51,405 bases of DNA from Ettlia oleoabundans (taxonomy: Eukaryota > Chlorophyta > Chlorophyceae > Chlamydomonadales), in contig JAAMXP010001613.1 in the NCBI GenBank assembly GCA_019693395.1, positions 731 to 52,135 of the forward strand, read 5' to 3'. Positions 15 to 29,687 of the stretch are shown piece after piece. The notes below the pieces were generated by a model. It made no database searches. It was not told where the DNA came from and was given only the letters and a program-made list of their open reading frames with translations. How positions within the stretch are numbered: the stretch's first letter is position 1; each line of letters opens with the position of its first letter. Position numbers and translations under genes: made by a program.

Positions 15-1992
15 TTTGGGTCGCATGTGAGCCAGGCATCCACCCCCAGCCTGTCCCTCAAGGTGTCCAGCAAGTCAGACTTCCTGATCTCGCCGCCACA
101 CTGGGAGGCCAGCTCTGACACAGCGCCCTGCAGCACGGACATGGCACAGCGCAGCACAGCATGAGCCGCAAAGCACAGCATTAGAGCACAGCACAGCAAA
201 CAGATGCACCCGGGCAATCACATCAGGGCAGCGGGGGGCAGGAAAAAGGGCAGCCGGGACGCGACACTGGCAGACACCACCCACGGACACACACGACCGT
301 ACTCGGAAAGAAGGCACTTCCAAGTGCTCACACCCGGGCAAAGAAACACAGAAATTGATGCAGAGCGGTGTACAGCAGCAGTACAGCAGCAGTACAGAAG
401 CAATACTGCACCAGCACAAAGCAGCAGTACAGCAGAAGTATGGAAGCAGTACAGTGTCCTCACGTTCACGTCGTACTGCTTGGCGGCGTCAAGCGCAAAC
501 TGGAAGTAGTCCTGCTGGTCGATGTAGTACAGCACAAAGCAGCAGTACAGCAGAGGAACAGCAGCAGTACAGTGCCTCACATTGACGTCGTACTGCTTGG
601 CGGCTGTGAGCGCAAACTGGAAGTAGTCCTGCTGATCAATGAAGTCGTCGGCGCAGGTGCCCCACTCCCTCCACATGGAGCGCCACAGGGCCTGGTCTCC
701 CTCTGCAGCAGGCAAGGGAAACACTACATGTTGGGTTCAAAACACGACCGTAAATGGTAGCCAGCAAGAGGCGACCCTGTAGGGCCGTACCTATGCCGGC
801 TTCTTCAACCCGCTCCAAGGGCTTTTCTTTCTTTCTGTTTCCTCTCTTCCTTTTATTTTTCTTTGGAATATCTTTGGAAAAAGGTTGAGACCTACCTTGA
901 AAGCCAGGTGCCACGCACGCCAGCTCTCCCAGAAGGCTCTGCATGTTGGCGGGGCTGTATGGCTCCCCGCCGCAGTCGGTGGGGGCAGGGTCCGAGAGGT
1001 TGAAGTTGGTAGGGATCAGGCCCTGGACGCTGAAAGATGCCCTGCAGCGCGGTTCCGGAAGCGGCAAGGGTGGGGCTACTGTTGGTGCGGTGAAAGGGGC
1101 TGTGTGCATTGTAAGTGGATGCAGGGGCAGCAGCAGTTGCTAGGACGGGAGATTGAGGTGGGAGGACAAGGGCAGCCATGTTGGTGCTTCGGTATGGCTG
1201 GGCACGCTCAGCAAAGCCTGTGCAGAAGTTGCTAAGAGAGGAGGACGGAGTGGGAGGTATGGTAAGGGCAAACAAGGGTGTCATGGTCGGGAGAGTTGGC
1301 GGGAAGCTGAGGGCAGCAGCGGGCTGATGCAGGCAGATTGGAGGGGGGTGGTCGCACAAACTGCTGCTCGACGGATATGAACGGCACGCGACATGGTAAT
1401 GGCAAAAACATAGAGGCAGTGATGCTGCACCACCAAGGGCTGGAACAGGGCAAGGATGGTATTTCGAGAGTGCCAAGTGCCTTCAGCTTCTGGCTGACAA
1501 AATGAGTGGCGGCAAACGTGGCAGCGAGCAGCACCCACATACCAAGGCTGCGGGGTGCATGGCTCGTTGTTGGCGGCTCCTAGGTAGCAGGTGCTCGGGG
1601 CCCACTCACTGCAACAAACAGGAACACAGCGGCGCAGCGTTTCCCAGCTGGTGAACAAAGTGCCCGCAAGTGTGACGGCAGCTGCCCCGTCGCGCGTCAC
1701 CCGCCGGCTGCCTCCTTCCTGCCCCTGAGGTAGGCACTGCCTCCGCGGCGCAACCCGAACCGCTTTCCCGCCTATGGGGGTAAATCACTGTGGGAAATGC
1801 CGCCTTGCCAGAGCGTGCAAAGAAGCTGCAGAAGCTTGACACGGCGGTGCTTTGGCCGACAGCCGAGCTTGTGACTCCATCGCTGCGGCCCTACCTGTTC
1901 AGCACCAAGTAATCATAGCATTGTGCATAACGCGCGCAAATCAGCAGCGCTGCAGCGAGGAGCAGCGCCCTAATGGGCCGCATGGTCGACAT
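15..1992 (-). CDS. RNase T2-family secreted protein lacking catalytic residues (3' part outside window)
   Basis: Exons read 1992-1895, 1608-1543, 1041-896, 702-581, optionally 514-464, then 127-15, ending at a GTGAG donor, so the C-terminus is off the left edge. The start gives a signal peptide (MSTMRPIRALLLAAALLICA) followed by YDYLVLN, matching the RNase T2 N-terminus before its QWP motif, here EWAPSTC. The CAS I region reads SFSVQGLIPTN where active enzymes have FTIHGLWP. The CAS II region reads LWRSMWREWGTC where active enzymes have FWxHEWxKHGTC. So both catalytic His, the CAS II Glu and Lys, and the second CAS II His are replaced. The DQQDYFQFAL block and the cysteines support the fold. 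Inference: a secreted or endomembrane pseudo-enzyme, perhaps RNA-binding or structural. Each junction is in phase and no stop interrupts it, so it does not look like a simple pseudogene. Confidence 0.8.
361..460. repeat. AGCAGCAGTAC-type minisatellite in intron
   Basis: Short repeats built on CAGCAGTA(C) fill the intron next to the duplicated exon of the RNase T2-like gene, and a further patch lies at about 540-575. They are the likely substrate for the slippage or unequal exchange that made the 117-bp duplication. Confidence 0.75.
413..633 (-). repeat. 117-bp tandem duplication of an exon piece plus adjacent intron
   Basis: Two units, about 530-633 and 413-516, lie 117 bp apart. Each holds the 51-base coding block for QDYFQFALxAAKQYDVN followed by a GTGAG donor and a stretch of intron. 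The coding blocks differ at about 6 of 51 positions. Both are open in the same frame. The second unit (514-464) follows a possible CAG acceptor and has phase 0 at both ends, so it could be skipped or included as 17 extra residues. Confidence 0.85.
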
Positions 1993-2397: not shown

Positions 2398-5300
2398 TTA
2401 ACTGCCTTGTGGAGACACCTCGGCCACCACCGGCGGCGCACGGCCGCCAAAGGCGGCACCGCCGCCACCAGTGCTGCTGCCGCCGGCCTCCAGCAGTACG
2501 CCTTGAAGCGCCTTCAGGAAGCGACGGGAGTAGGTGGCGGGATCAGCCACAGACACACGCTCGCCGCCGTGCACGGCAGCCTTCCACCAACGCTCCAAAT
2601 GCTTGCGGGCAGAGTAGTCCTGAACAGGGATGAGGACAGGGTGGAGGGGTCAAAGGCGAAGGGGTTGTGGACTTTTTCGGGCACCGGCAGGGCGAGTGAG
2701 GGATGCCAATGAAAGGATCGACAGAGATGGCGGCAGGCGAACATATGTGGCAACCCCCAAAACAGCACTTGCAGTCCCACTTGAGGCTTGAGGCAATGAG
2801 GGCAGGAGTGGGGCCAGCAGCAGCAGCACCCACCTGCAGGAAGTCTATGATCCCAAAGTAGAGCAGCACCGGCTCACACTGCACGCCTCCCCCGCTGCTG
2901 CACCACCGCACCGCCACCGCCGGCACCGCCTGCCCCAAGCTCTCATGCTCGCCGCCGCCGCTGGTGCCGGCACCCCGCTTGCTGATCAGCCTGCTGAGCT
3001 GCTGTGCCTGCTGTCTGACCACAGCAGCTGCCTCAGGTGACTCGTCCCTGCCCACAACCAGCGAGGCAGCTTCCTCATAGCTGCTGCAGTGGCGGGCGCC
3101 GCCGTACCCGCCGCCGCCGCCGCCGCCGCCGCCAAGCACGACGCAGCGCTCGTGACGCTCGCTGGGAGCTGCTGCGGCTGGCTGTGGCAGCTGCCGAAGA
3201 CCCTGCCCCTGCTGCTGCTGCTGCTGCTGTGCGTCATGCTGCTGCTTCGGGGTTGAGGGTTGGTCTGCCGCCCTACGCCCCTCACTGGATGGCAAGCCAC
3301 TGCTGATAGCGCCTTTATGCCTTTCGTCACCACCGCTGCCTAGCTCACAACCACCACTTTGGGATACATCATCCTGCTTCTCCCCACTGATGGGCTCCCC
3401 CTCCAGCTCAGGACCTCCGCTATGGCACCTCACACCCTGCCCCTCTTCACCAACGTCGCCATCCACTACTCCATAGCTGACGCGGTTCTTGCACATGCCA
3501 CCCTGCCCCTCCCCGCCATCGCCGCAACCCACTACCTCGTAGCTGCCCCGATCCAGCCACCAGTGGCCGGGGTCCCTGGCTTCAGCCACGGCCACAACCG
3601 GCACCGCTGACTGCAGAGGCGAACAGTTGATGCTATCGATGCTAGGATGTGAGGGCGCCGTTGTGGGCGCCGCTGGTGTGTGTTGGCGGTCTGCTCCTGC
3701 CACCCAAAGGCATGGTGGCGCCGGCTGCTGCCTGTTACTGCTGCTGCTCCTGCTAGGTCCTCTGAAGGGCCGCCGCTCATCTGCCGTGCTTGGAAATAAT
3801 GTGCCAGGTGCCACAGGCTGGCCCGCCGGGCAGTCACCTGCCGAAACGCCATCCAATCCCTTTGCCGCATGCACAGCCGCTCTGGCGCTCTGCCGTGCCT
3901 GCTGCCTGCTGCGATTGGCCAGCGTGACCAAAGCGGCGGCAGCCTGGCACATCTCCGGAGGCAGCGGCTGCGCTGCTACCCTCTCTGTCGCCTGAGGCAC
4001 AACCTGGATTTCCTGCTGCTGCGATTGCAAATGCTGCTGCTGTGACTCATGCTGCGGAGGCAGCAGCTGTGGCATGCCATGCTGCCCCTGCCACTGCCGT
4101 GGCAACAACCGCTCTTGCTCCTGCTGGTCCAGGCTTTCTATCACTGCCGCCAGCGCATTCGCCGTATCTATGCTACTGGCCCGGTGCTCAAGGTGGCTGA
4201 GCAGCCGCCACGGCAGCCTCTGCTGCTGCTGGAGCTGCTGCTGCTGTGGCTGCTGCGGGGGTACAGGTGATTCTGACGGACCTATCGGAGGCTGCTGCTG
4301 CCGCTGCTGCTGTCGTCCCGATGAGGCGCCAGATGCTGCGGCTGCCATGCCCGCGCCTATTGGCGGCTGCTGCTGCTGCCCGTGTTCCCGGGGGGCTCCA
4401 GGTAATACTGGCAGACCTACCTGCGGCCACTGCTCCTGCTGCTGCTGCTGCTCTTGTCCTGGTGCTGATCCAGCTTCTGCTGCCAAACCTACCACATGCT
4501 GCGGCTGCCGCTGATGTAGATGCTGTTGGCCAATTTCTGCGCCGGCTGATACTGTCTCAAAAGCAGGCGCGCCAACGTTTTGCTGTCCCTGCCTCTGCTG
4601 CTGCTGAGCTGCGCCAACAGCGGCGCTATCGCCTGGTGGCGGCGAGGGCGGCTCCGATACGTCGCTGCTTTCCAGCCCCAGGTTGGCCGCAGCGAGAGAG
4701 GGATGCAACGAAGCGGGACCATGCACCCCACCCCTTGTGCTGCCGTCTTGGCAGGCCGCCGCCACAGCGCCGCATGTTCCACCACCTGCCGGCAAGGTGT
4801 CGCTGCTCGTGCCACCACAACTGGCAGAAGTTTGGTCTGCCGGCCAGTTGGCCAAGGGGGGGTACCACTTGTCGTTACCCCAGCGAGTGAAATGAACGCC
4901 CTGCAGCGGCGGTGGCAGCAGCAGAGCGGCAGTGAGCGGATCGGTTGCCTTCATCACTCCTCACATGCCCGTTGCCTACAAATCTCGTCGTACCATTCCC
5001 AGGAACCCACAACACAGAACCTGCTACCGTGAGCAGCAGGCCACTCAATATCTGCTGTCAATGTTGAGACAATCGACGAAAGATGAACCGCTGGATAGAA
5101 ATGGGTCTGATTATGCACACAAACAACCAAAATGGAAGCCACCTACCATTAACAGTGAATAGTCGATGACTTTAAGTGCCTCCAGCAGCTGCAAGTCCCG
5201 AGCCAACTGCGACAGTACCGCCTCGTACTGTCCCGCTGGCAACAGCAGCTGCGGTAAAACAAAGGGAATGATTGGGGTTGGTCAGTGTGATGTTGCACAG

Positions 5301-7330
5301 GCAGCAAAACATGCACAGCGACGGAGTGACAGTACCGAACTGTACTGCCTAGCTGGCAGCAGCTTCTGCAGTACATTGTATGGTACATGCAATGAGCAAG
5401 CTTACAGGGGATTCAGCAGCGGGATGCCGTTTAGGCAGTGGTTGCTGGCAGGGAAGATGCGGCAGGAGGGAGCAGTGAGCAGCGGTGGATCTGGGAACCG
5501 TGCCAAGAGATGCACACAGGTGGGTTACGCCAGAGGGTAGAGCAACGAAGGTATAATCAGTACAGCTGGCGACACCTCTGACAGGCCTCATATATTCCTC
5601 TCCATGCTGCTGGCAAAAGACAATGCACGAGGCGACAACACACCCAGCAAGCAACAGTGGAGACACACGCACACTACACACCCCTCTTGGCCGCCCCACT
5701 TTCAATACACACCCCTTCAACCCTAAACAACCCAACTGACCACTTTTTGGGTGACCTCACCTTGTACTGCCCACCAGTGCCTGCATGCAGGTATATGCAT
5801 GTTGACAACCAAGTCCATCACCCCCTCAACCCGACCTGACCACACCCTGAACTGCCTACCTGCATGTCAACGTCCAAGTCCTTCAAGGTCGCATGGGGGT
5901 TGGTGGCACATGCCTCCTCCCCCGCTGTGCGCCCGTAAGTGGACCCCTTGAGGTCGTAGCGGCGGTGCAGGCGCAGGTCTGAGGGCAGCACGTTGGCCAT
6001 CACAACAAAACGTACCTGCATTTTCAGGGTGATCCGACCAATAACTATAACACTGATTTGCTGGACATCTCAGCTGGTACATCAGTGGCGGATCACTGGC
6101 GGCCAGCAGTGGTGTGAGGGCAATGATATGACACTGATTCAACACTGATATGGCAGGGGAAATCAGGGTAGTTCAGTGGCATATTAATGGCACCGGTCTG
6201 CCTGGTGTGAGATACAAGTACAAGGTGAGGTACAGGTGCACATTTGAGAAGATGTGGTGCAGGTCTCAGGGCCGCATGTTGGCCATCACCACGAACCGCA
6301 CCAAAGGGGAGGGAAATGATGGGGGAAAAGCATCAAGTTTGTAGTACACACAAGCAAAGGACAACCACGCTTTGCAGATGTCACTAAAAATCAATGCCAT
6401 GTGGTGCCTGCGGGTGCTCCTATGCACCAACGGTGCGCGAACTGTTGTGCAAAACCAACCTAAGCGCCATCCACCGCAACACCAAAGTGGCACAACCCAC
6501 TTACTAGCTTGCACAGCAGCCATGAGATTTTGTGCACCCGGTAAAGGCAAGCAACCCAGTAATAGAACCGAAAGCAAACAATACTAACAATAACGAGATG
6601 GCTCACCCGCCTGCCAAGCAGCGGCGACACCCTGTGCACGCCGTAGAAGCGGACCAGCAGGGTGGCGGGGTTGTGTTGCACGTGTCTGTAGTAGCGGGGT
6701 ATGAGGCGCAGCAGCAACCGCATCTCCTCCTTGCCCATGGTCTTCACTAGGAACCTGATGGGAAGCGGGTGGGAGGGATATTGGGTGAGACACGAAAAGC
6801 AGCATTTGCACCATAACCGCCACCGCCACCCCGCAGCAGCCGCAGCTCTGTGTTTCCAGCTGCTGTCGGATTCACAACAACAGCAGCGCTGCAACATCAG
6901 GTCAGTACAAAGTGCCACTGGTCCCACCAGCACCTGTCGTCGTCTGACAGGAAGAAAACGGAGCCGCTCTTGCCGGGTGAGCTCAGCATGCGCAGCGCAG
7001 CATCGCCCGTCAGAGACAGCAGGTAGTCCCTGCGGCATAACGCGGCGTGTGGTCTTCCTTACTAAGTCATTCTGCTGTAGAAAGCATAAACTGAAAAAGG
7101 ATGGCAGACACGAAGAAAGCATTGAATCGACAAAGGCTGGCAGACATGCCATGCGTAGGGTATGTCAGCGACAGCAGGCAGTCCCTGCACGCCCAGATAT
7201 GGACAACAAGCTGTTGCCATCATTTACAACTGTAGCAGGAGGCAGATAGCGTTGTGAGGGCATCAGCGTGCTAGCATCGAACGGCAAGCACGCTTTCTTC
7301 TTTGTGCCTGCTTGCTTGCTTGTTTGCTTG

Positions 7331-16800: not shown

Positions 16801-19800
16801 GAGGGGGGTAGCTGCGATGAATCTGCTGGCTCGGGTGGCTTTCAGGATGCTGCGCTGGGTAGCTCCTCACTTGGCCGTACCACCAGCGCCAGCCTTCCTC
16901 TCGGGGTGTCCAGCGGTAGCTTCACGCAGGCGCGTGGGCGGCAGGCGGCGGACAGCCGGCGGGTGCGACGGTCAACCTCAGGTACGCGGCTTCTGTGTGG
17001 GTATTTGGGTGTGTGGGTAGGAGGCCGGGGGCCTGCGGCGCTGTGGATCGCACGGGTGCATTGATCGTTATTGAGCTTTCTTCGCAGCTTCCTGCTAGTG
17101 TATGGTAGCGACAGGAAGAAAAGACTGCGGGCAGGGGGGCTGGGGGGTTGCTTTCATGTGGCTAGTTGGGCACTGCTTTGGCTGCTCTACCAAGTACCGT
17201 TGGGAGCCTGGTCCAACTGCTTCGCCTGTTGGCTACTGGGTGCTGCACGGCGGGCAGCTCACATCTTTTCCTTCCTCCCTGCTGTCGGCAAACCTGTTTG
17301 CATTTGTTTGCACTTTTTCACATTTCACATCAATTCTCGTTGTATGACCAAACTCGCTACGTTAAGTGGGTGCTGCAGGTCTGGCTGCGGTACCCACGGC
17401 CGACAGCGACACCGACGTCACACGCAGCGTACATAGCATGACAGTACTGCAACAATCGCACTCGCAGCAGGAATCCCCTAGACGTGAGTGTGGCTGGCTT
17501 GTCATGGGGCCTCTGTGCTAGCTAACTGCTGTGCTGCTTCTTTGAAGCCTGGCTTAAAATACTCACATGATGTTCTGTGTCACTCTTTGCCTTGTGCTGC
17601 ACCTCATGCCTTTGCTGTGACAAATGCCGTCCCGTGCTTTGTTGCCCGTGCCTTTCTTCTGCCATGCAGCCGAGAGCCGCAGCCCCTCCTTCCTGCTCAA
17701 GGGGCTGACCTGGCGCTCGTTCACGTCCGGCAGCCGCCGCCCCTCCCACACGCAGCTAGCCCCAGCGCTGGGGCAGCATCCCTTCCAGGCTCAGCAGCCG
17801 CCACACTCAGCCCAGATCACGCCCCGTGTGCAGCCCTCCATCCTGCCTACGCCACGCCTGGCGGCAGCCACACCCCCCGCTCCGCTGCTGGCCAACGGCA
17901 GCAGCAGGCAGCTGCAGCCGCTGGAGGCCTCGCCAGACTTTGCCGCTGCGGTGCAGGCGGCGGAGGCGGCAGAAGGAGCAGGTGTCGACCCTGCTGGTCC
18001 TGCAGCAAATGGGGAGGTCTCCTCACACGGGCCTGAAAATGAAGAGGATGAGCAGCAGCAGCTGCAGGAGGGGCAGAAGCAAGAGTTAGACATAAAGCAG
18101 CAGCAGGAGAAGCAACAGACGAGTAGAGAGCAGCAGCAGGAGGTGCAGGGACAGGCGCAGCAACGAGAGCAGAAGGATACTCATCAGCAGGCACATCAGC
18201 AGGATGGAGTTCAGCAGCATGCAGAGAATCAGCAGCAAGTAGAAATTCAGCAGCAGCAGCAGCAGGAAGATGAGGCAGAGGCAGAGGCAGAGGCAGAGGA
18301 CTTGCAGGACCTGGGGTTGCCCACCTGGCGCTCCGATGCCGTGCAGCTGCCAGAGATGCAGCTGCTACCAGACGGTATCCCCGCCTCTCCCACGGCTGGC
18401 ATGGAGACCAACGGCAGCTTCCCGCGGCTGCGAGGCAGGCGAGTGGACTGCTGGGGTGGCCCAAACAGGCTGGGTCATTGCTTGCTCGTATTGGTATTGG
18501 TGCGGGTGTGAAACCAGTGGGTCATATGCGGCTGCTCATGTGGAGCCGTGCCGCACACGGCCGGCCGTTGACTGACTCTGGTGCACGCGCTCTGCCTGAC
18601 TGCCAGCCGCTTCTCACAACTGATGTGCAGCGCTGCGCCCATGCTGAGCGCCATTCTTGAGCAGAACAGCGGGGCGACAGAGCAGGAGGATGGCGAGCGG
18701 CAGGAGGAAGAGAAGGCAGACGGGGAGCATGAGGAGCAGCAGCAGCAGCAGCCTGGGCCAGGCAGGGCACCAGCAGCGACAGGGGGCCCTGCTCCTCTTG
18801 GCGAAGCTGGATCCGTGCAGCACACACCGCAGGCTGGTTCGGCATCGGCTACGCGTAGAGGTAGCCGGAGGTCGCCACCTAACATGAGTGTTGGTTCTCC
18901 TCAGCCGCCCTCGGCGGTTGCAGCAGCAGGGGAGTCTCCCGCCACCACCAGCCAGCTCAGCAGTGCAGGAACGACCCCTACCTTTGCGGCAGCGGCGGCG
19001 GCGGAGGGGGGGTTGGCGGCGGGCCCGTCACGTGGCCTGCCTCTTCCCGGCGGCGTGCCCCGCATCGCGCTGCTAAGCGTGCCGCAGCAGGGGCTGCAGC
19101 CTGCGGGGGAGAGCAACGACTGGATGCAGTATTCACAGAGTGTGAGCGATGCAGGGCTGTCGGGGCGCGACTCGGACCTGCGCAGCACCCAGCGACGGCC
19201 CGGCGGCGGCACGCCCGGCAGTGAAGGTGGAGGGACCCCCACCTCCAGCTTCCGCCGCTACACACTGCCGCAGGCTGCTGGGGGGCCGGCCAATGGAGAG
19301 CTCAGCCGCTCCTCTCCTTTTGAATCACCAGCACCAGCAACGAGAGGAACCAACTCCGCCCAGCTAACGCCCAACGCATCCGGCGGCCGTAGCTTGGCCT
19401 CTGCACCTGCCACCGCCCGGCTTCCCGTGGCTTCAATTGGCGGCGGCAGCGGGGGCGGCGCGACGGTGCACCGCTTGGCTAATGCCGCGGGGCCGGCGCC
19501 GCCACCACCCGCCCCCGATGAGGCTATGGCAGAGGCTGCATCGGCGCCGCAAGCGTCGGCGCTCTCCCCGGCGCAGCCCTCCCCCGGCAATAGCGGCGGC
19601 CTGGGGCTGGCCCGCACAGCCAGCGCTCCAGCAGGGCAGCTGCTGGCAGCCACACAGGCAGGGGGGCAGCAGTGCAATCCCCCACACCAGCACCAGCGGG
19701 CTATGAGTTTGGCTGCGGTGGGGCGGGATGCGTCTGTGGTCGACCTCGCTTCGCCAGAGGCGGTGGCGGTGGCGGAGCGCATCAACAGCCGCCTAAGCCG

Positions 19801-21142
19801 CAAGGTCTCCGACAAGCTGGTGCAGGTGGGTGAAGGTTGTGGAGGTGGCAGCAGAATTAACGGTGGTGGTGGGTGCTGCGGTGGTTGGCTGGCTGGCAGC
19901 GGTGGCTGTTTCGAGGGTGATAACATGCCAGGCAGTCTGTGCTGGAGTGGAGTTCATGCTGGGCACGAGCGGAGATATGTGATGCGATTGAGTGGGATCA
20001 AAGTACTGGGTGCAGGAACGGCAGGTTGATGACGGTGCACGTGCCATAGTTGGCCTTCTCTCATTTCGCTTCTATTTAATTTCGACTCACCCGCTTGCGC
20101 TTGCGCCCACAGCGCTTGGCGCGTGCGCCTGGCGCTTGCCGTCCCAACTACTTGCATCTGTACTGCACGTTGGTACTGCAGGACCTTGTGAAGTTGGCAC
20201 GGTACCGCATTATTGGCGCCGTGGGGAGGTCACCGAGCACCCGCCAGTCCCGCATGCCCACCATGGTCCTTGCCGCCAGGCACATGCGGCGCAGCAGCGG
20301 CGGCGCATCCCCACACGCCGCCCCCCACACATCCTCTCAGGACGAAGGCGGCGGCGGCGGCGGTGGCGGCAACACACCCACCGCCACTGCCGCCGCCGCA
20401 GCTGCAGCTGCCATGGGCGGCGCAGCGGGGGAGGAGGCGGCAGCGCCGCCGCCGCGGCTGGGCATGGGCATGCCAGCTGTGGCTGTTAGCCAGCAGGCGG
20501 GTCAGCCCCCGGAAGAGGTGGTGCTTTTCTTTGGCATCATAGACTTCCTGCAGGTGGGAAGGGGGCGCTGTGGGATTGAAGGTCAAGCTGCCGGCGGGTG
20601 TGAGAGTGGCGCGGTGCAAGTTGTGTTTTCCAACCGCCTTAGCTGCGGCAAACTGTGGTGTCCTGCTTGCTTTGGGTACAACGAGAATGGGGCGGGCACA
20701 GCCATATTCAAGCCTCAGTCTGGGGTAGTGTGCGGGTTCACGCTGTCCATTTCGCAGCATCTGCTGTACTGCCTGCCCTACCCTGTCCTGCACTGCAGGA
20801 GTACAACATGCGCAAGAAGCTGGAGCACTCCTTCAAAGCGGTGGTGCAGGACGCAAAGGGCATCAGCGGTGAGCAATTGGTGTGCATGGCAGGATGGTTG
20901 TGTGGTATAAGTGGATCTGCTTAGCAGGGTGATGAGTAAGCGTTGCCTGGCCTGCTAGGGGGTTGCTGGCAGCAAACTCCTGTCCCCTGCGACATGAAGT
21001 CAGCTGGTATCAGACCAGCCACCTTGCAATTTCTTGCTGCGACCATTTTGTGTATCACTGTTGCTGTCATTCAGTGGTGGAGCCCCGTACCTACGCCAAA
21101 CGCTTTCTCAAATTCATGGAGAAAGTGTTCCCGGCCCCTTAG
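10880..21142 (+). CDS. MORN-repeat phosphatidylinositol phosphate kinase, plant PIP5K type
   Basis: Twenty-two exons (about 1580 aa): 10880-11026, 11202-11345, 11632-11780, 12159-12244, 12571-12939, 13117-13256, 13518-13628, 13910-13987, 14253-14347, 14632-14733, 15017-15091, 15369-15468, 15724-15838, 16058-16118, 16381-16510, 16720-16981, 17379-17483, 17670-18438, 18631-19825, 20182-20553, 20799-20868, 21075-21142. Eight MORN repeats (YxGxW...G.G) fill about residues 40-220, as in plant PIP5Ks. The kinase domain shows [34 protein letters not shown] (ATP lysine about 487), [13 protein letters not shown] (about 552), [11 protein letters not shown] (about 608), FGIIDFLQ (about 1528) and [19 protein letters not shown] at the end. 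About 900 low-complexity residues (acidic, Gln-rich, Ser/Pro/Gly-rich) separate DYSLL from IID. Expected to phosphorylate PI4P to PI(4,5)P2. Introns 1 and 18 have GC donors. It is the divergent paralogue of the neighbouring gene but has no membrane anchor. Confidence 0.92.
15177..15276. repeat. Inverted repeat: 28-bp arms, 44-nt loop
   Basis: Arms 15177-15204 and 15249-15276 are reverse complements at 26 of 28 positions. They lie inside intron 11 of the plus-strand PIP kinase, so the pre-mRNA could fold into a long hairpin. A direct repeat (AGCTACCAACCTGCT) starts in the loop at about 15232 and recurs at about 15290. I see no terminal target-site duplication. Confidence 0.85.
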
Positions 21143-23634: not shown

Positions 23635-28699
<5,065 letters not shown>

Positions 28700-29085
28700 C
28701 CCAACGAAACTCCTCCTGGCAGCGAGCTGAGTCCAAGGCGACACAACCAGCTCAAATGATAGCTCCGACTCGCAGAATGACGTTCAAAGCTGTGAGGTTG
28801 CCCGGCCGAAACCGCTGGCCAATGGGGCTTGCCAGGTTACGAAGTGGAGGTGTGAGCCCCTTCAGAGGTCCAACCAAATGGTTACAAATGAAACCAATAG
28901 ACACCAGGTACGGAGAGGCGACAAAGGGCTGGAGGTTGGGCTCAGCACGCTCATTTCACGCGGGCCAAGCGGCTCGATGGATTATCTCCCCTGGAATACA
29001 GCAAGCCGGTTCTACAGTGCGTGTGTTCTGCCCACCGGCCTTGCGCCCTGTAACCCTTCCACAACCCACCCACTACTCAAGCAGC
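28700..29085. promoter_or_regulatory. Bidirectional promoter region, katanin and BolA4-like
   Basis: The 386 bp lie between divergent start codons and must hold both promoters. I recognise no specific element. Confidence 0.55.
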
Positions 29086-29687
29086 ATGGCGCACCTTGTC
29101 AGCGGTCGAATCATGACGGTAGTGCGGCAGTGCCGCCCACCCGCTGTGCGGGCGGCAGCCGGCGGCCGCAGCTGGGCGCCACCACGGCGGATGCTTGCGG
29201 CGCCACTGTCGGCGGCAGCAGAGGGCAACAACATCAGCAGCGCCCTCATGGAGCAGATGCGCAGCAAGATCCAGCAGGCCCTGAACGCGGAGACGGTGCA
29301 AGTGGAGGACATGCAGGGCGATGGGCGGCATGTGGAGATTGTGGTGGTCAGCAAGGAGTTTGAGGGCAAGAGCGCGGTCAACCGGCAGCGCATGGTATAC
29401 AAGGTGGGTGGGTGCTTCTCTAAGTGCTCCTGTGCGGTGGTGGATGCCTTCCGGAGTCACTGCACCATACCCGCTGGAGCAGGGGTGGCTAGGTGCTGAA
29501 CCTCTTGCTGTGTGATAACACCCAGCAGCACCAGCTGCCCTCCTAACAGCGAAGGACCCTGCGATCCCTTCTCCTACAACCTCATTCCACCCGCGTGTTG
29601 TTGCAGGCCATCTGGGAGGAGCTGCAAGAGACGGTGCACGCTGTGGATGCTATGGTCACGAAAACGCCCGGAGAGATGAGCAGTTGA
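29086..29687 (+). CDS. BOLA4: BolA4-like protein, organelle-targeted
   Basis: Two exons, 29086-29403 and 29607-29687, give 132 aa. Residues 1 to about 45 are rich in Arg, Ala and Ser with no acidic residues, like a chloroplast or mitochondrial transit peptide. The BolA domain follows: [19 protein letters not shown], then [20 protein letters not shown], then [20 protein letters not shown] and TKTPGE. The [15 protein letters not shown] block is characteristic of plant BOLA4, including Gln in place of the usual BolA histidine. BolA proteins pair with monothiol glutaredoxins (GRXS14 or GRXS16 in plastids) and act in iron-sulfur cluster transfer and redox control. The start is the ATG that begins the transit-like segment. 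It is head-to-head with katanin and convergent with RPL35. Confidence 0.92.

What the first reader, a model, noticed from the sequence alone, without database searches (positions are those of the whole stretch)
581..1992. RNase T2 fold with every catalytic residue replaced
CAS I reads FSVQGLIP and CAS II reads WRSMWREWGTC, so both catalytic His, the CAS II Glu and Lys and the second CAS II His are gone. Signal peptide, cysteines, reading frame and splice phases are all kept. That points to selection for a non-enzymatic secreted role, such as an RNA or nucleotide binder, a storage protein or a receptor-like ligand. RNase T2 homologues without catalytic His exist in plants, but an algal one this thoroughly altered is notable.
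Basis: partly seen in the sequence, partly recalled or inferred. Interest (0 to 1): 0.75.

Follow-up and report, generated by a model that had tools for sequence, protein, structure and literature searches.

The report
Conserved secreted RNase T2 pseudoenzyme gene
This gene encodes what looks like a secreted protein built on the scaffold of an RNA-cutting enzyme but with the cutting and RNA-gripping site rewritten; a relative from another genome shares part of the loss, so it looks like a retained non-enzymatic protein and not a freshly broken gene.

Summary
A minus-strand gene (window 15-1992) splices by GT-AG introns into an RNase T2 protein (PF00445, E 5.4e-20). All six catalytic residues listed for tomato RNase LE are replaced (H39Q, W42I, H92S, E93M, K96E, H97W), as are seven further base-binding residues listed for RNase NW. 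The visible chain has no histidine. Motif residues F, G, L, P, W, W, G, T, C are kept.

The genome's second detectable T2 gene keeps HGLWP and HEWLKHGTC and shares the first two introns. One metagenomic relative, P0001 (53 of 79 residues identical), has the same altered helix, LWxxMWxxWGTC, so the CAS II loss predates the split of the two genomes. Its CAS I was not found.

New: the end of exon 4 is tandemly duplicated in the next intron (117-nt unit), in frame and open. Five of six changed codons in its 60-nt core are synonymous (p about 0.001-0.006, weaker at wider edges), so it may be coding.

Lost base sites and an acidic chain disfavour RNA binding. Dead T2 proteins are known in plants and flatworms: new member of a known kind. 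Function, expression and lack of activity are untested.

The parts
1895..1992 (-). Exon 1: signal-peptide-like start MSTMRPIRALLLAAALLICARYAQC followed by YDYLVLN; first in-frame ATG at 1992, second at 1983
   Evidence: Sequence read directly; exon end and donor gtaggg; the script's exon 1 begins at the second ATG, 1983
1543..1608 (-). Exon 2: EWAPSTCYLGAANNEPCTPQP(W); phase-2 introns on both sides
   Evidence: both intron positions and phases shared with the intact paralogue on contig C615 (positions compared by eye)
896..1041 (-). Exon 3 with the altered CAS I, FSVQGLIP (His39 to Gln, Trp42 to Ile)
581..702 (-). Exon 4 with the altered CAS II, LWRSMWREWGTC (His92 to Ser, Glu93 to Met, Lys96 to Glu, His97 to Trp)
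   Evidence: the relative P0001 has LWGGMWEKWGTC
464..523 (-). Second copy of the last 20 codons of exon 4 (IDQQDYFQFALDAAKQYDVN) inside intron 4, followed by its own gtgagg donor; part of a 117-nt tandem duplication whose first copy of these codons lies at 581-640
   Evidence: period 117, 2.0 copies, 88% match, 412-645; 8 differences in 60 nt; 5 of 6 changed codons synonymous; open reading from first to second copy
15..127 (-). Exon 5: GAVSELASQCGGEIRKSDLLDTLRDRLGVDAWLTCDP(K), then donor AA|GTGAGT or, if unspliced, an in-frame TGA at 11-13
   Evidence: 25 of 38 residues identical to P0001

Best explanation
The gene encodes a retained RNase T2 pseudoenzyme. After duplication of a T2 gene (inferred), one copy lost the whole catalytic centre and the base-binding residues but kept a signal-peptide-like start, the non-catalytic motif residues and part of the disulfide frame; the altered helix LWxxMWxxWGTC then persisted. 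Shown here: the loss, intact splice sites and frame as far as visible, a second T2 gene with intact motifs and two shared introns, and a relative with most of the same CAS II loss. Inferred: that the protein is made, secreted or sent to the vacuole, and has no RNase activity. Most likely role, inferred and weakly held (about 0.4 by itself): an acidic extracellular or vacuolar protein acting through its surface, as a stress- or nutrient-regulated storage protein or a protein-binding partner, and not through RNA. The duplicated end of exon 4 with its second donor may add an in-frame long isoform with an extra 39 residues.
For: PF00445 5.4e-20. 0 of 6 catalytic and 0 of 13 catalytic plus base-binding residues kept in the RNase NW alignment (residue roles from passages of PMC9762611); no His in 178 visible residues; 9 of 9 non-catalytic motif residues kept (Fisher p 0.0002 against 0 of 6; I chose this split after seeing the sequence). 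Complete GT-AG splicing with consistent phases. Second T2 gene with HGLWP and HEWLKHGTC, introns 1 and 2 at the same positions in phase 2. P0001: 53 of 79 residues identical, all four Trp and all three Cys of that stretch shared, Glu93 to Met and His97 to Trp shared. GC 0.78 at codon position 3 against 0.60 and 0.49 at positions 1 and 2 and 0.47-0.64 in the introns. Partial mature chain pI about 4.05.
Against: The end of the gene is unseen (N run). There is no expression evidence. P0001 is one fragment of unknown origin that keeps Lys96; only open frames are in that database, and drift to that identity leaves 78 codons open about 20% of the time, so openness proves little. No relative of exon 3 was found, so the CAS I loss is seen in one genome only. 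Pocket residues 78 and 79 fall in a loop of differing length, and the sequences are distant enough that some losses are expected by chance. The duplicated exon end has diverged as much as the duplicated intron start (8 of 60 against 5 of 51 plus one gap), so only the placing of its changes hints at constraint, and that hint fades as the edge is widened (3 of 8 changed codons alter the residue at 66 nt).
Confidence: 0.8

Rival explanations
1. A decaying pseudogene: catalysis was lost by drift and the frame has not yet been broken.
For: All active-site residues are gone; the 3' end is unseen; the exon duplication could be part of decay; 78 codons stay open under drift to this identity about 20% of the time.
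Against: The relative P0001 shares most of the altered helix and 53 of 79 residues across two exons; visible splice sites are intact; non-catalytic motif residues are kept while catalytic ones are lost; most changes between the duplicated exon ends are synonymous.
Confidence: 0.12
2. An RNA- or nucleotide-binding protein that kept the substrate pocket without cleaving.
For: The T2 fold is probably kept; dead nucleases do become binders in other families (general knowledge, recalled).
Against: B1 and B2 residues are replaced too (Gln12 to Glu, Tyr17 to Thr, Trp42 to Ile, Asn44 to Thr, Tyr50 to Asp, Phe89 to Leu), the Lys96 position is Glu, and the visible chain is acidic.
Confidence: 0.06
3. 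A still active enzyme with relocated catalytic residues.
For: Pseudoenzymes may have migrated catalytic residues (start of the abstract of PMC10211241, seen in the listing only).
Against: The visible chain has no histidine, and T2 chemistry uses two (PMC4136927, passages). Unseen exons could hold some.
Confidence: 0.02

Closest known systems
Plant S-like RNases NW (1iyb), LE (1dix) and MC1 (1bk7)
   Same: Best PDB sequence matches; same order of motifs; conserved Trp, Gly, Thr, Cys around CAS II
   Different: All six catalytic and seven further base-binding residues replaced here; a single cysteine in place of the Cys24/Cys25 pair
Land-plant T2 homologues inactive or lacking the essential His (91 sequences in a set of 715 in PMC5598434, passages read; includes a 37-sequence grass clade; the Calystegia sepium rhizome protein and barley rsh1 are cited there, seen as reference titles)
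   Same: T2 genes that lost catalytic His, some in whole clades; losses in 24 clades of that study
   Different: In class I of that study the loss goes with a shift to basic pI, whereas this chain is acidic (about 4.05); in class III, however, six of 22 shifts to acidic pI went with the loss. Its four algal sequences came from Chlamydomonas, Volvox and Bryopsis only
Flatworm RNases Sja2, Sja3, Sja6 and Nasonia T2 paralogues (PMC4136927, passages read)
   Same: Duplicated copies with a changed CAS II His (Nasonia, some flatworms) and, in the three Sja proteins, a changed CAS I His as well
   Different: Animal lineages; changes at Glu and Lys of CAS II or at the base sites are not mentioned in the passages read
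Auxenochlorella UTEX 250-A tandem array of four RNase T2 genes (PMC12633428, passage read)
   Same: T2 gene expansion in a green alga
   Different: The catalytic state is not stated in the passage read; no second copy was seen near this gene, but the contig ends in N beside it

Membership tests
RNase T2 family (PF00445), by descent | Profile match over the domain above the curated cut-off | tested here: met
   72.7 bits against a cut-off of 26, profile positions 1-164 of 188
RNase T2 family (PF00445), by descent | Intron positions shared with a T2 gene of the same genome that has intact motifs | tested here: met
   Introns 1 and 2 at the same place and in phase 2 in the C615 paralogue (positions compared by eye); its later introns do not all match
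Active RNase T2 enzyme | Catalytic His in CAS I | tested here: not met
   Gln58 at the His39 position
Active RNase T2 enzyme | His, Glu, Lys and His of CAS II | tested here: not met
   Ser109, Met110, Glu113, Trp114
Active RNase T2 enzyme | Base-binding sites B1 and B2 | tested here: not met
   0 of 8 residues kept, Trp42 included (it also counts as catalytic); residues 78 and 79 are alignment-ambiguous; site residues from passages of PMC9762611
Secreted T2 scaffold | Signal peptide | not testable with these tools
   The N-terminus reads like one by eye; no signal predictor is on hand
Secreted T2 scaffold | Conserved disulfides | tested here: inconclusive
   Cys18 and Cys100 equivalents kept, Cys54 kept in the MC1 alignment, Cys24/25 reduced to one, Cys81 unclear; C-terminal cysteines lie beyond the visible gene
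Retained pseudoenzyme | Loss shared by a relative | tested here: met
   CAS II of P0001, three of four residues lost; its CAS I was not found
Retained pseudoenzyme | dN/dS below 1 against an orthologue | not testable with these tools
   No orthologue DNA was obtained
Plant T2 class I, II or III | Class-specific intron pattern | tested here: inconclusive
   PMC5598434 says land-plant patterns do not coincide with algal ones; its figure 3 is not held, so positions were not compared one by one; no tree was built

The most novel reading that the evidence does not exclude
The gene belongs to an old lineage of acidic, secreted T2 pseudoenzymes in green algae that works through protein surfaces, and its duplicated exon end with a second donor produces two isoforms, one with a doubled helix alpha-D, so that splicing tunes its partner binding.
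Probability: 0.12. Interest if true: 0.6.

Novelty: new member of a known kind. Interest (0 to 1): 0.4.

Why it matters
T2 proteins without catalytic residues recur in land plants and flatworms, and little is known of what they do. A genome in which only one other T2 gene was detected, with intact motifs, gives a simple pair, live-looking and dead-looking, in which a non-catalytic T2 function could be tested without the redundancy of plant T2 families. The in-frame exon duplication is a small, checkable case of a protein that may have gained a repeated helix by tandem duplication over a splice donor.

Tried and rejected
Protein database search with the whole spliced chain gave nothing at E <= 0.001 (568 candidates), although a search by the exon-4 region found P0001 (1 of 1 candidate); the first result is therefore not evidence of absence. 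Exon 3 search: no candidate. Scans of viral contigs with the chain, with P0001 and with alignment A1 and of genome contigs with A1 found no relative. Searching the own genome with the chain, PF00445, RNase MC1, the HEWxKHGTC pattern and P0001 gave only this gene and the C615 paralogue; six-frame exon searching misses divergent exons, so two genes is a lower bound. Mutually exclusive use of the two exon-4 ends was considered and set aside: by eye there is no GT between the CAS II motif and the first copy, so a second donor is the simple option; splicing from the first donor to a CAG inside the second copy (66 nt, in frame, by eye) is another. The drift simulation on P0001 is weak and is not used as proof. 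The duplicate test was repeated with wider edges: by-codon binomial p rises from 0.0009 (60 nt) to 0.0025, 0.005 and 0.011 (63, 66, 69 nt), by-base p from 0.006 to 0.011, 0.018 and 0.063. Rfam and tRNA searches of the window: no match. Literature: eight searches were answered., aimed at an inactive algal T2 protein, returned no paper; of the 2 papers listed I read passages of one, and of the 12 listed passages of three, and these passages say nothing of inactive algal T2 proteins. The library holds open-licence papers only.

Full report
What is there. The gene runs on the minus strand from the ATG at 1992 (or 1983) down to at least position 15. Five exons (1895-1983 or 1992, 1543-1608, 896-1041, 581-702, 15-127) join with GT-AG introns of 286, 501, 193 and 453 nt in phases 2, 2, 1 and 0. 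The spliced chain scores 72.7 bits against PF00445 and is closest in the PDB to plant S-like RNases NW, MC1 and LE. Splicing the junctions properly raised the RNase NW score from 43.1 to 46.9 bits, which supports the model. The gene runs into a run of N just outside the window. Its last visible exon ends CCA AA|GTGAGT, a consensus-like donor that also reads CCA AAG TGA; P0001 also ends in TCDPK, and whether at a stop or at a contig end is unknown. So either the gene has further exons in the gap or it ends there, about one eighth of the domain short (profile 164 of 188).

The lost active site. PMC9762611 (passages) lists His39, Trp42, His92, Glu93, Lys96 and His97 as the catalytic site of RNase LE, and gives base-binding residues of RNase NW. 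Mapped through the HMMER alignment, none of the six catalytic residues is kept, and none of thirteen when the base-binding residues are added. Residues 78 and 79 are uncertain because the loop before CAS II differs in length. The 178 visible residues hold no histidine at all. Nine other motif residues (F, G, L, P of CAS I; W, W, G, T, C of CAS II) are kept; I chose this split after seeing the sequence, so its Fisher p of 0.0002 is descriptive.

The second T2 gene. Elsewhere in the genome (C615) lies a T2 gene with MHGLWP and FWKHEWLKHGTC. Its first two introns fall at the same places in the same phase as in this gene: LSR|IWGPSLC against LNS|EWAPSTC, and six residues before the CAS I His or Gln (compared by eye). 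It has at least one intron that this gene lacks, between its CAS II and the next helix (by eye). The shared introns point to common descent. Only these two genes were found; that is a lower bound.

A relative with the same loss. One protein from public assemblies, P0001 (202 aa, nine contigs, longest 1001 bases), carries exon 4 and exon 5 counterparts with an intron read through between them. It is identical at 28 of 41 and 25 of 38 residues. Its CAS II reads LWGGMWEKWGTC: His92, Glu93 and His97 are gone, Met and Trp are shared with the window gene, and Lys96 is kept. The duplicated exon end is not seen in it. No relative of exon 3 was found, so the loss at CAS I is documented in one genome only. 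Because that database holds only open frames, and drift to this identity leaves 78 codons open about 20% of the time, openness is weak evidence; the shared replacements and shared exon ends are better evidence.

A duplicated exon end. Tandem Repeats Finder reports a 117-nt unit, 2.0 copies, 88% match, at 412-645. It contains the last 20 codons of exon 4, the donor and the start of intron 4. The two 20-codon copies differ at 8 of 60 bases in 6 codons; five of the six are synonymous and one changes Thr to Asp. If one copy drifted freely, at most one amino-acid change would occur in 0 to 0.7% of simulations, by transition bias and by number of changes. The core was chosen after seeing the alignment: with one or two more codons at the left edge, one or two more replacements come in and the by-codon p is 0.0025 or 0.005. 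The exon part has diverged as much as the intron part (8 of 60 against 5 of 51 plus a gap), so the hint of constraint rests on where the changes lie. Reading through from the first to the second copy is open (117 = 3 x 39). The simplest reading is a second donor that adds 39 residues with a second copy of the helix. This has no transcript support.

What it does. The replaced base sites and the acidic partial chain (pI about 4.05) speak against RNA binding. In land plants, class I losses of the catalytic His go with basic shifts, while in class III six of 22 acidic shifts go with the loss (PMC5598434, passages), so acidity is no rule either way. Non-catalytic T2 proteins reported there include a vegetative storage protein (ginseng GMP, inactive although it keeps its His), and yeast Rny1 inhibits growth without catalysis (PMC3400635, passages). 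I hold a storage or protein-partner role in the secretory route as most likely, at about 0.4, with the pseudoenzyme status itself at about 0.8.

Novelty. Ninety-one sequences in the 715-sequence study PMC5598434 are inactive or lack the essential His, and flatworms and Nasonia have further cases (PMC4136927, passages). The two tree studies whose passages I read sampled few green algae: four sequences from three genera in PMC5598434; Chlamydomonas, Prasinoderma and Mesostigma in PMC9250077. Searches showed me no paper on an inactive algal T2 protein, within the open-licence library and the passages read. It is a new member of a known kind.

Noticed in passing
window 412-645: 117-nt tandem duplication covering the end of exon 4 and the start of intron 4, in frame, open, with most changes in the exon part synonymous.
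   Followed up: yes
window 2546-7164, minus strand: Upstream neighbour with PIP5K domain exons (PF01504 hits in 5114-5281, 5820-6069 and 6463-7164) and a long, by eye glutamine-rich open frame at 2546-4960.
   Followed up: partly
window 28609-29496, plus strand: Open frame with a BolA-like domain (PF01722, 8.2e-8).
   Followed up: no
L010 (G000:C615:7500-13496), minus strand: T2 gene with intact motifs; open frames continue past the T2 domain, and whether they belong to the same gene was not worked out.
   Followed up: partly
window 18572-20026 and 20080-20907, plus strand: Two long open frames (485 and 276 codons) with no Pfam match at E <= 0.001.
   Followed up: no
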